Virus record (IMG/VR): IMGVR_UViG_3300048672_000412
Location: 1-41,145 of that record
Length of the DNA stretch: 41,145 nt
Source: a virus
Reading direction: 5' to 3' (one strand)
Part shown: piece by piece, positions 4,998 to 29,590 of the stretch
How the letters are laid out: every line of letters begins with the position of its first letter
Position numbering within the stretch: position 1 is the first letter of the stretch
Notes under the pieces: generated by a model
Told to the model about the DNA's origin: nothing
The model's database searches: none
The model's input: the letters and a program-made list of their open reading frames with translations, nothing else
Translations under genes and position numbers: made by a program

Positions 4998-6759
4998 CCC
5001 ACGCTACTATCAACAAGAAAGCCACGACAGCGTTATTTCGTGGGTAAAATCAACTGCTGAATCGTGCGTTATTGAATTGCCGACAGGCGCAGGTAAAAGC
5101 GTAGTTGTTGCCATGATTGCAAACACGCTGAATCAAATTAGCAAAGGCAAACACGTTTTGTGCATCGTTCCCAAAAAAGAATTAGTTGAACAAAATGCAG
5201 AAAAACTACGTTTGGTTGGCGGCAAATGCTCGATGTTTAGCGCAAGCGTTGGCGAAACGTGCTTAAAACACGCGCTTGTGGTTGGTACACCTGTTAGCAT
5301 TAAAAACCAGATACACCGATTCGGTGCTAAGTTTTGCGCTGTGATTATTGATGAATGTCACCAGATTACGCCAACGGTAAAAACAATCATCGAATCATTG
5401 CGTGAACACAATCCTAATTTGCGTGTTATTGGTTTATCAGCTACCCCGTACCGTTTAGGCAGTGGTTTTGTGTACGGTATTGATGCAAACGGTAAGGTGC
5501 TAGATGATACGCAAGCGAAAGAGCCTTATTTTAAGCGGCTAGTTTATCGTTTAGAAGCTCGTGAATTGATTGAGCAAGGTTTTCTATCAAATCCAGTCAT
5601 CGGCGCAACCAACGCGCATTATGATACCAGCGGATTGACACTAAATAGAACGGGTAATTTTGACAGCGCAACCGTTGATAAAGCTTTTATTGGCAAAGGT
5701 CGTTTAACATCAAGTATCGTTGCTGATATTGTTGAAAAGTCGCAAGGTCGCAAAGGTGTAATGATATTTGCCGCAACGATTCAGCACGCGCATGAGGTCA
5801 TGGAATCATTACCGCGTGGATTATCGCAAATCGTAACAGGTGAAACACCAGCGAATGAACGAGCTGAAATTTTAGTAATGTTCAAAAGTGGTGGGATTAA
5901 ATATCTTGTGAATGTTTCTGTATTGACTACAGGTTTTGATGCCCCTAATTGCGACACTATAGCTATTTTACGCGCCACTGAAAGCGTGTCATTGCTTCAA
6001 CAGATTATCGGGCGTGGTTTGCGTATTTGTGACGGTAAAAGCGACTGCTTAGTTTTGGATTATGCTGAAAACATCGAAAGGCACTGCCCCGATGGTGACG
6101 TGTTTAATCCTGAAATCAAAGCAAGCGGTGGTGGTGAAGTAGGTGTACCAGTCAAGGCAAAATGCCCTAGTTGTAATGGTGTTAATGAGTTTTCAAAACG
6201 CCGTGACGTTGACGCAGAACAACCAATTGATGATAACGGTTATTTGTTGGATTTAGAAGGTAACAGAATCGAAGTTGAAGGCTTAGGCGCAATGCCAGCG
6301 CATTATGGCAGGCGTTGTACTTTTACAGTTGTGAATCATGGTGTGATTGATAGATGTTCGTATCGCTGGACGTTTAAAGAATGCCTTGAATGCAACCATG
6401 AAAATGATATAGCGGCGCGTTACTGTGCGAACTGTAAAACCGAATTGATTGACCCCAATGACAAGCTAAAACTTGAACACGCGCAAATCAAAGATGCAGC
6501 GGTTTTACAAACAGAAGAATGTTTAGATGTTCAAGTTACACCGACACTAAGCAAAGCAGGTAATGAATGCTTAAAAGTGAAATTCACAACACCTACGCGC
6601 TCGTTTTTGGTGTGGTTTAATAAGTCAACGCCAAAACAAATGTGCTTGCAAATAGAGTTTGAATTGGCACAAAACTTGAGTATCAAAACGGTGACATACC
6701 AGAAAGATAAAACAGGTTTTTTTAAAATTTACGGTTACAACAAAGAGGTTTTGGTGTAA
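4990..6759 (+). CDS. DEAD/DEAH-box superfamily 2 helicase
   Basis: A 589-aa SF2 helicase, probably for replication or recombination. From the ATG at 4990 the motifs are: motif I TGAGKS near residue 34, motif II IIDECHQ near 117, motif III SATPYR near 148, and motif VI QQIIGRGLR near 336. The C-terminal part carries two zinc-ribbon-like elements, CPSCNG and CLECN...CANC. A TTG at 4969 would extend the protein by seven residues. The ATG is preferred because an aggcgg-like ribosome site lies 8-13 nt upstream and it gives a typical 8-nt overlap with the preceding gene. The stop codon overlaps the -10 box of the downstream RNA. Confidence 0.9.
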   Translation: MINPRYYQQESHDSVISWVKSTAESCVIELPTGAGKSVVVAMIANTLNQISKGKHVLCIVPKKELVEQNAEKLRLVGGKCSMFSASVGETCLKHALVVGTPVSIKNQIHRFGAKFCAVIIDECHQITPTVKTIIESLREHNPNLRVIGLSATPYRLGSGFVYGIDANGKVLDDTQAKEPYFKRLVYRLEARELIEQGFLSNPVIGATNAHYDTSGLTLNRTGNFDSATVDKAFIGKGRLTSSIVADIVEKSQGRKGVMIFAATIQHAHEVMESLPRGLSQIVTGETPANERAEILVMFKSGGIKYLVNVSVLTTGFDAPNCDTIAILRATESVSLLQQIIGRGLRICDGKSDCLVLDYAENIERHCPDGDVFNPEIKASGGGEVGVPVKAKCPSCNGVNEFSKRRDVDAEQPIDDNGYLLDLEGNRIEVEGLGAMPAHYGRRCTFTVVNHGVIDRCSYRWTFKECLECNHENDIAARYCANCKTELIDPNDKLKLEHAQIKDAAVLQTEECLDVQVTPTLSKAGNECLKVKFTTPTRSFLVWFNKSTPKQMCLQIEFELAQNLSIKTVTYQKDKTGFFKIYGYNKEVLV

Positions 6760-12340: not shown

Positions 12341-12349
12341 TGTTATAAT
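12341..12349 (+). promoter_or_regulatory. Extended -10 promoter of RNA copy B
   Basis: TGTTATAAT is a perfect extended -10 with no convincing -35. It lies 7 nt before the conserved TGGTGT. Confidence 0.65.
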
Positions 12350-12356
12350 GCGCTTA

Positions 12357-12459
12357 TGGTGTCGTTACCTAAAGTAAGATTTTAAACAAATCCGTTTCTG
12401 ATTTATGCGTGGCTCAAATCTTAGCCATAACGACCGCATAAATTAGAGCGGATTTTTTT
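12357..12459 (+). ncRNA. Five-stem pseudoknot RNA, copy B (before AP2 gene)
   Basis: Same architecture as the copies at 6771 and 29646, with different stem sequences. P1 is GTCGTTA 12361-12367 / TAACGAC 12428-12434. P2 is AAGATTT 12376-12382 / AAATCTT 12416-12422. P3 is AAATCCG 12388-12394 / CGGATTT 12449-12455, then a U run. P4 is GGCT 12411-12414 / AGCC 12423-12426, with the 8-nt loop holding P2 3'. P5 is a perfect 9-bp stem, 12401-12409 / 12435-12443. P1 3' abuts P5 3' directly, as in copy A, suggesting coaxial stacking. Unpaired TGGTGT, CCTAAA and TAAAC are conserved. Confidence 0.87.
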
Positions 12460-12476
12460 ATTGAGTAAAAGTTTTA

Positions 12477-27575: not shown

Positions 27576-27580
27576 ACCTA

Positions 27581-27606
27581 AGCCGCCCCACAAAGGCGGC
27601 TTTTTT
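27581..27606 (+). terminator. Terminator of the plus-strand cassette
   Basis: AGCCGCC/GGCGGCT arms enclose a 7-nt loop and are followed by six T on the plus strand. It keeps cassette transcription from running antisense into the MuF gene. Confidence 0.88.
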
Positions 27607-29590
27607 ATTTCTCAATTTTCTTTAATTGTTCAAGCGTGTATTGCTTTCCGCTATCATCAACGAATCTGTCAAGCGTTGTGCCATTCCTAAACATTTCACC
27701 GCGTGCTTTTCCTAAAACTTCATCTTGAAATTCTGGTGATTTTTTAGACAACCATGTTTGATAGGTTTCAGTTTCTGGAATTTGACCGTCAAGGCTGGAG
27801 CGTGTCCCTGCCGTTGGTTCTTTTAAACCTAATTCTTTCCATGACTTCAAAACCGCTGTAACTACTGAGCGACAATTATGTGTTATAATGTTGTTTGCAG
27901 TAAATACATTATCATCACAACCAAGATTATAAACATGACCAGAAAAACTTGTGAAACCAAGCTCAACAACGCTCTCAAAATGCTCAACAACGGGCTTAAT
28001 GCGGTCGAAATCAGCAATAAACTCAATATCGGAACTTCTATTATTTACAGGCTCGCTAAACAGAACGGCATCAATACTAAGCGCATCAATATCAGTGATA
28101 GCATCGATGTTAATGCTGTTTTGGAGTTGTTCAATAAAGGCATTGGCGTTGGTGGCATCGCTAAACATTTCGGCGTATCTGATTCCGCTATCAAAACAGT
28201 TTTCAGAAAAAACGGCATCGCCACACGCAACCGTTCTGAGCAACAACAAGCCAGAATGGACAATACAAGCCCTGAGCAAATCAAATTGCTTACCAGTAAA
28301 GCTAACGCCGCAATGCGTGGTAGAGAAGTGCCGCATGATATGCTTGTTAAACAAGCGGCTGGTAGATTCAGAAATCAAAGTGCTTTGAGTTCGTATCTTG
28401 AAGAAACTTTTGACGTATTGATGCGCGATAAAGGGTATGAAGGAATCCGCCAATTTCAAATCGATAAGTACAACGCTGATTTCGTTTTCGGTAACGTCGT
28501 TGTGGAAATCTTCGGTGGTTGTTGGCACTGGACAGGCACACATCTTGCCCATTCTAAGGATAGAATTAAAACTATTCTCGATGCTGGATTCCATTTGATT
28601 ATCGTTGCCGCTAGAAATGAAGGTGTTTCTTTTGAAACCGCACGCGAGGTTGTCACCCTTATTCAAGAATTTAGCTTGAATGAATCCTCTATCCGTCATT
28701 ATCGGATGATTCGGAGTAACGGTGAGAATGTTATCACCAGAACTTCTAATGACGATGACTTGACCATTGAATGGGCGTTTAGAAATGTAAGAAACACTAC
28801 CACTGGGCGTTACATGAGTGTCAGGTAGCACACATCTAAAATGCAATGGAGGGCGCGGATAAGCTGTAAGCGGATAAACTTGACCATCTTTAGCGCGGCA
28901 TATCGGCGTGGTTCTCATATCCAATGTAGCTACAAATTGAACCGATTTAACCAAATCATCATTCGCCTTGTAAAACTCATCACGCGCGGCATTAGTTGAA
29001 TGTGCAACAGCCGTTAATACTAATGCCTGCGTTTTGGTTCTATTCAAGTGCATAACGCCATCGCTATATTGCAATGCTTTCGTTCCAATTATGCGCCGTG
29101 TAATATCACTATAGCTTGTGCCTTCTATCAAGCCCATTCTAACCGCCGATTGAATTGAATTAAACGATTCGGTATCGAGTTTATCAATCCACTCTTTGAG
29201 CAATTTACCCTGAAAAGGCGTGTCTTCGATTGCTGCAAATAACGTCACAGGTGCAGCCATGACTAAATTTAACTCAATAGGAATAGCGTTTGTTATGGTT
29301 TTATGTTGCCATTCTTGTTCATAAACAGCCGCGTCTTTCATTTCCTGCAACAAGTCGCGCCCCATTAAGTCGTAGCCTTCATTTAAAACCGTGCGTATTG
29401 ATTCTAGTTGTTTATCGACTTGCTTAATAGTTGTATTGCTATCAATATCAAGCGTTTTTAGCTTCAACACTAAATCTTTCTCAACCGTTCGCAATAAATC
29501 CATCACTTTTTTGGTTGTATTGGAGTAATACCGATTTAATAGTATTTCATGTGCAATGGTTTTATCGCGTAATAATTCATTGGATGTCAT
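27605..29590 (-). CDS. MuF-like head morphogenesis protein with intein
   Basis: A 661-aa precursor. Residues 1-252 and 573-661 form a 341-aa MuF/SPP1 gp7-like minor head protein, with VATLDMRTTPICRAKDGQVY and the conserved PPLHFR-CRSVV site. Residues 253-572 are an intein inserted between HFR and CRS, the most conserved motif of the family. Splicing should restore HFRCRS. MuF proteins associate with the portal and help DNA packaging or ejection. The gene lies downstream of the portal but is separated from it by the plus-strand Rha-P63C cassette. It is overlapped antisense by the endonuclease ORF within the intein. Confidence 0.88.
   Translation of the reverse strand: MTSNELLRDKTIAHEILLNRYYSNTTKKVMDLLRTVEKDLVLKLKTLDIDSNTTIKQVDKQLESIRTVLNEGYDLMGRDLLQEMKDAAVYEQEWQHKTITNAIPIELNLVMAAPVTLFAAIEDTPFQGKLLKEWIDKLDTESFNSIQSAVRMGLIEGTSYSDITRRIIGTKALQYSDGVMHLNRTKTQALVLTAVAHSTNAARDEFYKANDDLVKSVQFVATLDMRTTPICRAKDGQVYPLTAYPRPPLHFRCVLPDTHVTPSGSVSYISKRPFNGQVIVIRSSGDNILTVTPNHPIMTDRGFIQAKFLNKGDNLACGFKRNTFISSGNDNQMESSIENSFNSILRMGKMCACPVPTTTEDFHNDVTENEISVVLIDLKLADSFIPFIAHQYVKSFFKIRTQSTLISESTSRLFNKHIMRHFSTTHCGVSFTGKQFDLLRACIVHSGLLLLRTVACGDAVFSENCFDSGIRYAEMFSDATNANAFIEQLQNSINIDAITDIDALSIDAVLFSEPVNNRSSDIEFIADFDRIKPVVEHFESVVELGFTSFSGHVYNLGCDDNVFTANNIITHNCRSVVTAVLKSWKELGLKEPTAGTRSSLDGQIPETETYQTWLSKKSPEFQDEVLGKARGEMFRNGTTLDRFVDDSGKQYTLEQLKKIEK
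27881..27889 (+). promoter_or_regulatory. Extended -10 promoter of the antisense endonuclease
   Basis: TGTTATAAT matches the extended -10 consensus. Read on the other strand, it encodes Ile-Ile-Thr of the intein's conserved ANNIITHN motif. No good -35 is seen. The proposed start ATG lies 45 nt downstream. Confidence 0.6.
27935..28828 (+). CDS. Vsr-like (EDxHD) homing endonuclease, antisense within the intein
   Basis: A 297-aa protein encoded opposite the intein, in exact codon register. Residues 10-45 and 60-95 are two helix-turn-helix units (NAVEISNKLNIGTSIIYRLA; GVGGIAKHFGVSDSAIKTVF). Residues 150-240 form a Vsr-like PD-(D/E)XK nuclease: LEETF (E156/157), YNADFVF (D182), VVVEIFGGCWHW (H198), then D209 and the LDAGFHLIIV strand. 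This fits the EDxHD homing endonuclease class known from introns and split inteins. An in-frame ATG at 27878 would add 19 residues, but it lies on the -10 box, so the ATG at 27935 is preferred. Expression would also yield RNA antisense to the MuF message. Confidence 0.85.
   Translation: MTRKTCETKLNNALKMLNNGLNAVEISNKLNIGTSIIYRLAKQNGINTKRINISDSIDVNAVLELFNKGIGVGGIAKHFGVSDSAIKTVFRKNGIATRNRSEQQQARMDNTSPEQIKLLTSKANAAMRGREVPHDMLVKQAAGRFRNQSALSSYLEETFDVLMRDKGYEGIRQFQIDKYNADFVFGNVVVEIFGGCWHWTGTHLAHSKDRIKTILDAGFHLIIVAARNEGVSFETAREVVTLIQEFSLNESSIRHYRMIRSNGENVITRTSNDDDLTIEWAFRNVRNTTTGRYMSVR

What the first reader, a model, noticed from the sequence alone, without database searches (positions are those of the whole stretch)
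27881..27889. Endonuclease promoter written into the intein's conserved C-terminal codons
TGTTATAAT, an extended -10, reads on the other strand as Ile-Ile-Thr of the splicing motif ANNIITHN. The promoter therefore travels with the intein and is protected from loss by splicing constraint. It would allow endonuclease expression independent of late transcription and produce antisense RNA over the capsid-associated gene.
Basis: partly seen in the sequence, partly recalled or inferred. Interest (0 to 1): 0.7.

Follow-up and report, generated by a model that had tools for sequence, protein, structure and literature searches.

The report
Promoter hidden in intein splicing codons
A phage "protein intron" carries its DNA-cutting spreading gene on the opposite DNA strand, and codon choices in its self-splicing motif look as if they were selected to spell a promoter that switches that hidden gene on.

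Summary
TGTTATAAT lies at 27881-27889 and is antisense to I316-I317-T318 of an intein in a MuF-type head gene. The word alone is at chance level. Comparison shows more. In 104 of 104 and 77 of 77 relative loci a Vsr/I-Bth0305I-like homing endonuclease is encoded antisense, codon-on-codon, with the intein frame open across it. In 147 distinct inteins the Ile/Val/Leu codon before T-H-N ends in A in 111 of 139 cases (24.0 expected); ordinary inteins give 7 of 29 (6.0 expected). Of 39 inteins with the same I-I-T, 32 spell TATAAT and 28 TGnTATAAT. Neighbouring promoter-making wobble bases are biased too, in three sets; the main bias also holds in GC-rich phages and on a tree. An extended -10 promoter for the antisense endonuclease is the best reading; no transcript has been measured. 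Corrections: the endonuclease starts at 27935, not 27878; splicing fixes six of nine bases, the other three are kept by separate selection; 41 of 147 relatives lack TAnnnT there. A possibly overlapping preprint could not be read.

The parts
27605..29590 (-). MuF-type minor head gene interrupted by the intein (661 aa precursor)
   Evidence: Pfam Phage_Mu_F 4.7e-9 and Intein_splicing 1.5e-4, the latter below Pfam's cut-off; PHROG head morphogenesis 7e-111
27875..28834 (-). Intein C1..N320 (splicing domain = residues 1-97 and 279-320; residues 98-278 lie antisense to the endonuclease and are predicted disordered)
   Evidence: borders; AlphaFold model; Foldseek RecA mini-intein prob 1.00; exact empty allele in L001
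27935..28828 (+). Homing endonuclease gene, 297 aa, helix-turn-helix regions plus a Vsr/I-Bth0305I-like nuclease, in codon register antisense to the intein
27881..27889 (+). Extended -10 element TGT-TATAAT, antisense of I316-I317-T318
   Evidence: codon bias in relatives
27896..27896 (+). Predicted transcription start (not measured)
   Evidence: inference: 7 nt after the -7 base at 27889
27923..27937 (+). Translation start region of the endonuclease: weak Shine-Dalgarno here (relatives GAGGTT/AAGGTT) and ATG, antisense of intein block F H300-V-Y-N-L304
27878..27880 (+). Upstream ATG (antisense of H319) from which the mechanical ORF starts; judged not to be the real start
   Evidence: in-frame stops between it and the conserved ATG in several relatives, e.g. 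L018, L020, L022
27580..27602 (+). Intrinsic terminator-like site on + that would end transcription from the small + genes upstream

Best explanation
TGTTATAAT is a sigma-70-type extended -10 promoter that drives a stand-alone homing endonuclease gene encoded antisense, codon-on-codon, inside a mobile intein. The intein is translated with the head protein and should splice itself out. The endonuclease is transcribed from the other strand, starting about 27896, with its ribosome site and ATG (27935) lying antisense to intein block F (H-V-Y-N-L). Selection on endonuclease expression keeps particular synonymous codons in the splicing motif (ATA/GTA/TTA/CTA before T-H-N, ACA for Thr, ATT for the preceding Ile) that spell TGnTAtAaT. 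Shown: the double-coding architecture, the codon bias, its recurrence across relatives, the exact empty allele. Inferred: transcription from the site, cleavage of the empty head gene, protein splicing.
For: Exploratory set, 72 inteins: wobble A at the codon before T-H-N in 62 of 71 degenerate codons vs 15.1 expected, the strongest bias of 50 codon positions; Thr wobble A 32 of 72 vs 15.6; next-codon wobble T 47 of 72 vs 23.8. Second set, 35 inteins: 22 vs 4.4, 18 vs 4.3, 25 vs 8.7. Third set, 40 inteins: 33 vs 6.5, 22 vs 5.5, 26 vs 11.1. Synonymous resampling, 107 inteins: TATAAT 30 vs 2.7, TGnTATAAT 23 vs 0.8, TAnnnT 76 vs 16.9, none of 5000 runs reach; one per 50% cluster (39): 12 vs 0.84, 8 vs 0.17, 26 vs 4.3. 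Exteins over 60% GC: 38 of 57 vs 4.6. On a tree of 107 the codon changes amino acid at least 29 times but wobble only 21 times vs 50.5 if resampled, the lowest ratio of 29 positions. Control: 47 ordinary inteins, 7 vs 6.3. + profile of 78 representatives: T-15 .59, G-14 .76, T-12 .76, A-11 .94, T-10 .58, A-9 .78, A-8 1.0, T-7 .82. Among 31 inteins without the canonical site 8 have a displaced or degenerate -10 better than resampling at p<0.05, about 1.6 expected. SD-like 4-mers at the endonuclease start 69 of 107 vs 38.9. A + terminator-like site at 27580-27602 separates the gene from upstream + genes.
Against: No transcript data. No -35 box. 31 of 107 and 41 of 147 relatives lack TAnnnT at this place. 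The window's own Shine-Dalgarno is weak. Most control inteins are bacterial (39 of 47) and of other lineages; no HEG-free intein of this same lineage was found. The bias could in principle serve another DNA-level function.
Confidence: 0.8

Rival explanations
1. The conserved bases are an operator: the endonuclease's own helix-turn-helix domains (or a host factor) bind the intein end, for autorepression or to mark the occupied site, and the resemblance to a -10 is incidental or secondary.
For: The endonuclease carries several HTH-like matches and the biased bases lie just upstream of its start.
Against: The conserved pattern is T-15 G-14 T-12 A-11 A-9 A-8 T-7 with -10 the least constrained base of the hexamer, which is promoter-like; in some relatives a similar hexamer is displaced by a codon or more (L184, L194, L212, L219, L167), which fits a promoter better than a fixed operator.
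Confidence: 0.08
2. The match is a by-product of the splicing motif plus shared ancestry and codon usage; there is no promoter, and the endonuclease is read from long + transcripts or not at all.
For: Six of nine bases follow from I-I-T; the 9-mer alone is at chance level.
Against: Wobble bias in three sets, in GC-rich exteins and on a tree, absent from control inteins; neighbouring extein wobble positions are saturated (ratios 0.89-1.05).
Confidence: 0.06
3. The bias acts on the sense strand: A-ending codons before T-H-N slow the ribosome or shape the mRNA so that the splicing domain can fold.
For: ATA, GTA, TTA and CTA are minority codons in the pooled exteins.
Against: Ordinary inteins show no such bias. 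A pausing role does not explain the matching bias for ATT in the previous codon or the ATG and Shine-Dalgarno bias at block F.
Confidence: 0.04

Closest known systems
Canonical large inteins with an in-frame homing endonuclease domain (e.g. LAGLIDADG inteins; review PMC3943268, passages seen)
   Same: Splicing blocks of the usual kind, exact insertion with an intein-free allele, endonuclease carried by the intein.
   Different: There the endonuclease is translated as part of the intein from the host gene's mRNA; here it is a separate frame on the opposite strand with its own apparent promoter and start site.
I-Bth0305I / EDxHD homing endonucleases (PDB 3r3p) and Vsr (PDB 1cw0)
   Same: Catalytic fold: Foldseek probability 1.00 to both; profile E 7.4e-6 to 3r3p.
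   Different: I-Bth0305I sits in a group I intron (recalled); here the gene lies antisense in an intein, with HTH-like N-terminal regions.
ShiLan element (Arsenault, Gosselin, Gogarten 2025, PMC11855218; abstract, introduction, section 3.6, discussion and references read)
   Same: Endonuclease hidden in another frame of an open, in-frame insertion in a phage gene.
Fractured genes with split inteins and a new endonuclease family (Dassa et al. 2009; recalled, seen only as a citation, not held)
   Same: Vsr-like endonuclease associated with intein halves (recalled).
   Different: Here the host gene is one continuous frame through the intein, and the endonuclease overlaps it instead of splitting it.
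Antisense homing endonuclease genes in group I introns, and intron endonucleases with their own promoters such as T4 td/I-TevI (both recalled)
   Same: Endonuclease expressed independently of the host gene from inside the element.
   Different: Intron sequence is not translated in the host protein; here promoter and start site are also codons of the splicing blocks.

Membership tests
Intein (self-splicing, class 1 type) | N-terminal Cys/Ser, block B TxxH, C-terminal HN followed by Cys/Ser/Thr | tested here: met
   C1, T40, H43, H319, N320 invariant in 26 aligned inteins; +1 Cys
Intein (self-splicing, class 1 type) | HINT fold | tested here: met
   Model residues 1-97 and 279-320 mostly confident; best PDB hits are RecA mini-inteins, hedgehog also matched
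Intein (self-splicing, class 1 type) | Exact insertion relative to an uninterrupted allele | tested here: met
   L001: N-extein match ends at 5753 and the C-extein match extrapolates to 5754; likewise L002 and L006
Intein (self-splicing, class 1 type) | Protein splicing activity | not testable with these tools
   needs expression
EDxHD (I-Bth0305I-like) homing endonuclease | Catalytic domain fold | tested here: met
   Foldseek 3r3p and Vsr prob 1.00 (E 2e-3 to 1e-2); hmmsearch 3r3p 7.4e-6
EDxHD (I-Bth0305I-like) homing endonuclease | The motif residues E..D..x..H..D (motif recalled) | tested here: inconclusive
   D182 and E191 invariant, E156 and H198 at least 90% conserved, but the alignment to 3r3p pairs D182 with Ala and does not settle all motif positions
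EDxHD (I-Bth0305I-like) homing endonuclease | Cleavage of the intein-free allele | not testable with these tools
   needs an enzyme assay
Sigma-70 extended -10 promoter | TGn-TATAAT, conserved beyond what the protein requires | tested here: met
Sigma-70 extended -10 promoter | -35 element (optional: weak or absent is usual for the extended -10 type; recalled) | tested here: inconclusive
   no partner in scans and no -35 signal in the profile; its absence does not exclude this type
Sigma-70 extended -10 promoter | Transcript starting there | not testable with these tools
   no RNA data
ShiLan-type hidden endonuclease insertion | No splicing domain; endonuclease in another frame (PMC11855218) | tested here: not met
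   a splicing domain is present and the endonuclease is on the opposite strand
Split intein / fractured gene | Host gene split into separate frames around the endonuclease | tested here: not met
   one open 661-aa frame; antisense frame open across the endonuclease match in 104 of 104 and 77 of 77 loci

The most novel reading that the evidence does not exclude
A widespread class of phage inteins is a fully double-stranded coding element: one strand encodes the splicing protein, the other an independently expressed Vsr/EDxHD-like homing endonuclease, and the splicing blocks themselves double as its extended -10 promoter (antisense of block G, I-I-T-H-N) and its Shine-Dalgarno and start codon (antisense of block F, H-V-Y-N-L). 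The self-splicing motif is thus under two codes at once; loss of the promoter without a protein change is possible but selected against.
Probability: 0.72. Interest if true: 0.87.

Novelty: new variant of a known kind. Interest (0 to 1): 0.77.

Why it matters
Inteins are usually described as making their endonuclease only as part of the host protein. Here the endonuclease could be made at another time and level than the head protein, so that homing could begin without late gene expression, and antisense RNA would be laid over a capsid-assembly gene. It is also a measurable case of a promoter embedded in the codons of a catalytic motif, with an amino-acid-neutral test built in. Practically, many phage genomes carry this mostly unannotated antisense endonuclease, including well-studied Salmonella and E. 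coli phages in which the test is easy.

Tried and rejected
Rejected: that the 9-mer is significant by itself. Rejected: ATG 27878 as start, because relatives have stops after it. Considered: antisense openness as a trivial effect of the protein; for this window 17.4 antisense stops are expected in the 297-codon gene and P(none) is 6.6e-11, over 107 inteins 664 are expected and none seen, and in Acinetobacter phage P1068 the same family stands alone beside the MuF gene with 10 antisense stops. Considered: the codon bias as a GC effect; the GC>0.6 subset speaks against it. Considered: a -35; none seen. Tried: to find HEG-free inteins of the same lineage as a negative control; 80 of 80 loci kept from the intein-alignment scan had the endonuclease, but one of its two search patterns is itself the shadow of the endonuclease, so this scan is biased towards HEG carriers. 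Tried: Morganella phage IME1369_01 as a possible HEG-free intein; it gave no endonuclease hit, and its 353-codon gene looks intein-free (inference from length). Rows dropped before counts: duplicates, and loci without the expected intein end near the expected place (5 of 77; 13 of 48; 4 of 80); four control loci with an endonuclease-family hit. Papers: ten searches listed no description that I recognised of an antisense endonuclease in an intein; Gosselin et al. 2025 (bioRxiv 10.1101/2025.01.02.630785, whose title speaks of non-canonical architecture of actinobacteriophage inteins) and Dassa 2009 are not held and could already report the architecture.

Full report
Observation. TGTTATAAT stands at 27881-27889 on the + strand. 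Read on the - strand it is ATT-ATA-ACA, residues I316-I317-T318 of an intein that ends TANNIITHN|C. The 9-mer by itself is at chance level in the window (2 found, 0.95 expected). It has no -35 partner by consensus scan.

Setting. The - strand frame 27605-29590 encodes a MuF-like minor head protein (Pfam 4.7e-9; PHROG 7e-111) with an intein of 320 aa at 27875-28834. Relatives with 83-90% DNA identity in the flanks have the uninterrupted gene; in L001 the N-extein match ends at 5753 and the C-extein match extrapolates to 5754, an exact empty site. The + strand carries an endonuclease whose frame nearly fills the intein. Its model is confident (mean pLDDT 87.8) and its nuclease domain resembles I-Bth0305I and Vsr (Foldseek probability 1.00, E 2e-3 to 1e-2; profile E 7.4e-6). 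The intein model is confident mainly in residues 1-97 and 279-320; residues 98-278, antisense to the endonuclease, have pLDDT below 50; the best structural matches are RecA mini-inteins.

Double coding is a class property. Among loci found with endonuclease queries, the in-register antisense frame is open over the endonuclease match in 104 of 104 (the window and three named phage records included; coverage 0.99-1.00) and in 77 of 77 of a second scan. In 80 of 80 loci kept from an intein-alignment scan the endonuclease family is on the opposite strand. Some contigs recur between sets; duplicates were removed before the codon counts. The alignment scans reported 273, 202 and 570 relatives in IMG/VR, of which the best 80 each were kept, and 10 in bacterial genomes. 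Named phages with the arrangement include Snoke, Salmonella PK2 and Vibrio 1.113.A, and Aaphi23, Gordonia Vivi2, Klebsiella RCIP0054 and Edwardsiella MSW-3. Of ten unusual host frames, five matched MuF and four portal protein, two of these both; three matched only the intein. For this window 17.4 antisense stops would be expected and P(none) is 6.6e-11. Acinetobacter phage P1068 gives a natural control: a free-standing member beside a head gene, with 10 antisense stops.

Where the endonuclease starts. Relatives share an ATG (78 of 107) or GTG (8 of 107) antisense to the residue before V-Y-N-L of block F, and several have in-frame stops between the ATG opposite His-319 and that start. In the window the start is 27935. 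SD-like 4-mers precede it in 69 of 107 relatives, 38.9 expected from synonymous resampling; the window's own is weak.

The promoter test. For the codon just before T-H-N the promoter hypothesis predicts a wobble A (T at -12), for Thr a wobble A (T at -15) and for the previous Ile a wobble T (A at -9). Expected values use each locus's own extein codon usage with a small pooled prior. Exploratory set of 72: 62 of 71 vs 15.1, 32 of 72 vs 15.6, 47 of 72 vs 23.8; the first is the strongest of 50 positions. Second set of 35: 22 vs 4.4, 18 vs 4.3, 25 vs 8.7. Third set of 40: 33 vs 6.5, 22 vs 5.5, 26 vs 11.1. Together, Ile/Val/Leu codons there end in A in 111 of 139 vs 24.0 expected (Ile 54 of 69, Val 27 of 39, Leu 30 of 31); in exteins above 60% GC, 38 of 57 vs 4.6. 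In 47 ordinary inteins (39 bacterial, 8 viral) the count is 7 of 47 vs 6.3 over all degenerate codons and 7 of 29 vs 6.0 for Ile/Val/Leu (Fisher p 1.7e-8 against the class, not corrected for relatedness). Synonymous resampling of 107: TATAAT 30 vs 2.7, TGnTATAAT 23 vs 0.8, TAnnnT 76 vs 16.9, no run of 5000 reaching; with one per 50%-identity cluster (39) 12 vs 0.84, 8 vs 0.17, 26 vs 4.3. On a tree of the 107 endonucleases the codon's amino acid changes at least 29 times and its wobble 21 times against 50.5 if resampled, ratio 0.42, the lowest of 29 positions; the next is the neighbouring codon at 0.46, while eight extein codons give 0.89-1.05. The amino acid thus moves among Ile, Val and Leu while the base that makes T-12 stays.

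Same protein, same promoter. Of 39 inteins with I-I-T exactly as in the window, 32 have TATAAT and 28 TGnTATAAT; the other seven are TATGAT (4), TATTAT (2) and GATAAT (1). Over all 147 the hexamer is TATAAT in 43, TACAAT in 22, TAAAAT in 11, TAGGAT in 9; TAnnnT in 106.

Against. 41 of 147 have no TAnnnT at the place. Among 31 such in the first 107, eight have a displaced or degenerate -10 better than resampling at p<0.05, about 1.6 expected, and the rest do not. There is no -35 signal. The controls are not the nearest relatives, and no HEG-free intein of the lineage was found. No RNA was measured, so promoter activity is an inference from selection on codons.

Mechanism. Head genes are transcribed and translated into the precursor, which should splice. 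From the other strand RNA polymerase would start about 27896 and make a separate endonuclease, ending inside the intein at 28828. The + terminator-like site at 27580-27602 would stop transcription from the small + genes upstream, so a local promoter is to be expected. Of the nine bases, six are fixed by I-I-T; -15, -12 and -9 are free wobble bases and are the ones whose bias points to separate selection.

Comparison with the known. The review PMC3943268 (passages) describes intein endonucleases as fusions with the intein. The ShiLan element (PMC11855218, sections read) hides an HNH enzyme in another frame without a splicing domain. The Snoke paper notes the intein and its passages mention no endonuclease (PMC6776784). 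Antisense endonuclease genes in group I introns and intron endonucleases with their own promoters are recalled, not looked up. Ten paper searches listed no antisense endonuclease in an intein, but a 2025 preprint on non-canonical intein architecture was not readable, so priority for the architecture is open; the promoter in the splicing codons is the part I consider most likely new.

Noticed in passing
window 12341-12462 (+): The only other TGTTATAAT in the window is intergenic and is followed at once by a strongly structured stretch (RNA fold -35.2 kcal/mol, z -6.1) ending in a hairpin and T run: a candidate small RNA gene with the same extended -10; no significant Rfam match.
   Followed up: partly
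L263 (Acinetobacter phage P1068), 2007-2900: A free-standing member of the endonuclease family lies opposite the end of a head gene without an intein around it: a possible before- or after-stage of intein capture.
   Followed up: partly
window intein residues about 104-113 (28496-28525): The best conserved block in the middle of the intein protein (EDFHGD in relatives) lies antisense to the endonuclease motif VEIFGG, so conservation there says little about splicing (by coordinates).
   Followed up: partly
window 27955-27926 (-): An 11-of-12 sigma-70 match (TTCACA-18-TATAAT) on the sense strand at intein block F, reading towards the C-extein; it falls on the VYN codons and may be chance.
   Followed up: no
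L117:1786-4575: A frame in a Scytonema contig with a weak MuF match and two HINT-type stretches, PT-HINT at 72-195 and the antisense-HEG intein at 230-554.
   Followed up: no
L256 (Salmonella phage GE_vB_M5) and L264 (Vibrio phage vB_VaM_H2): One stop inside the endonuclease match in each while the intein frame stays open over it, perhaps decaying endonucleases or sequencing errors.
   Followed up: no
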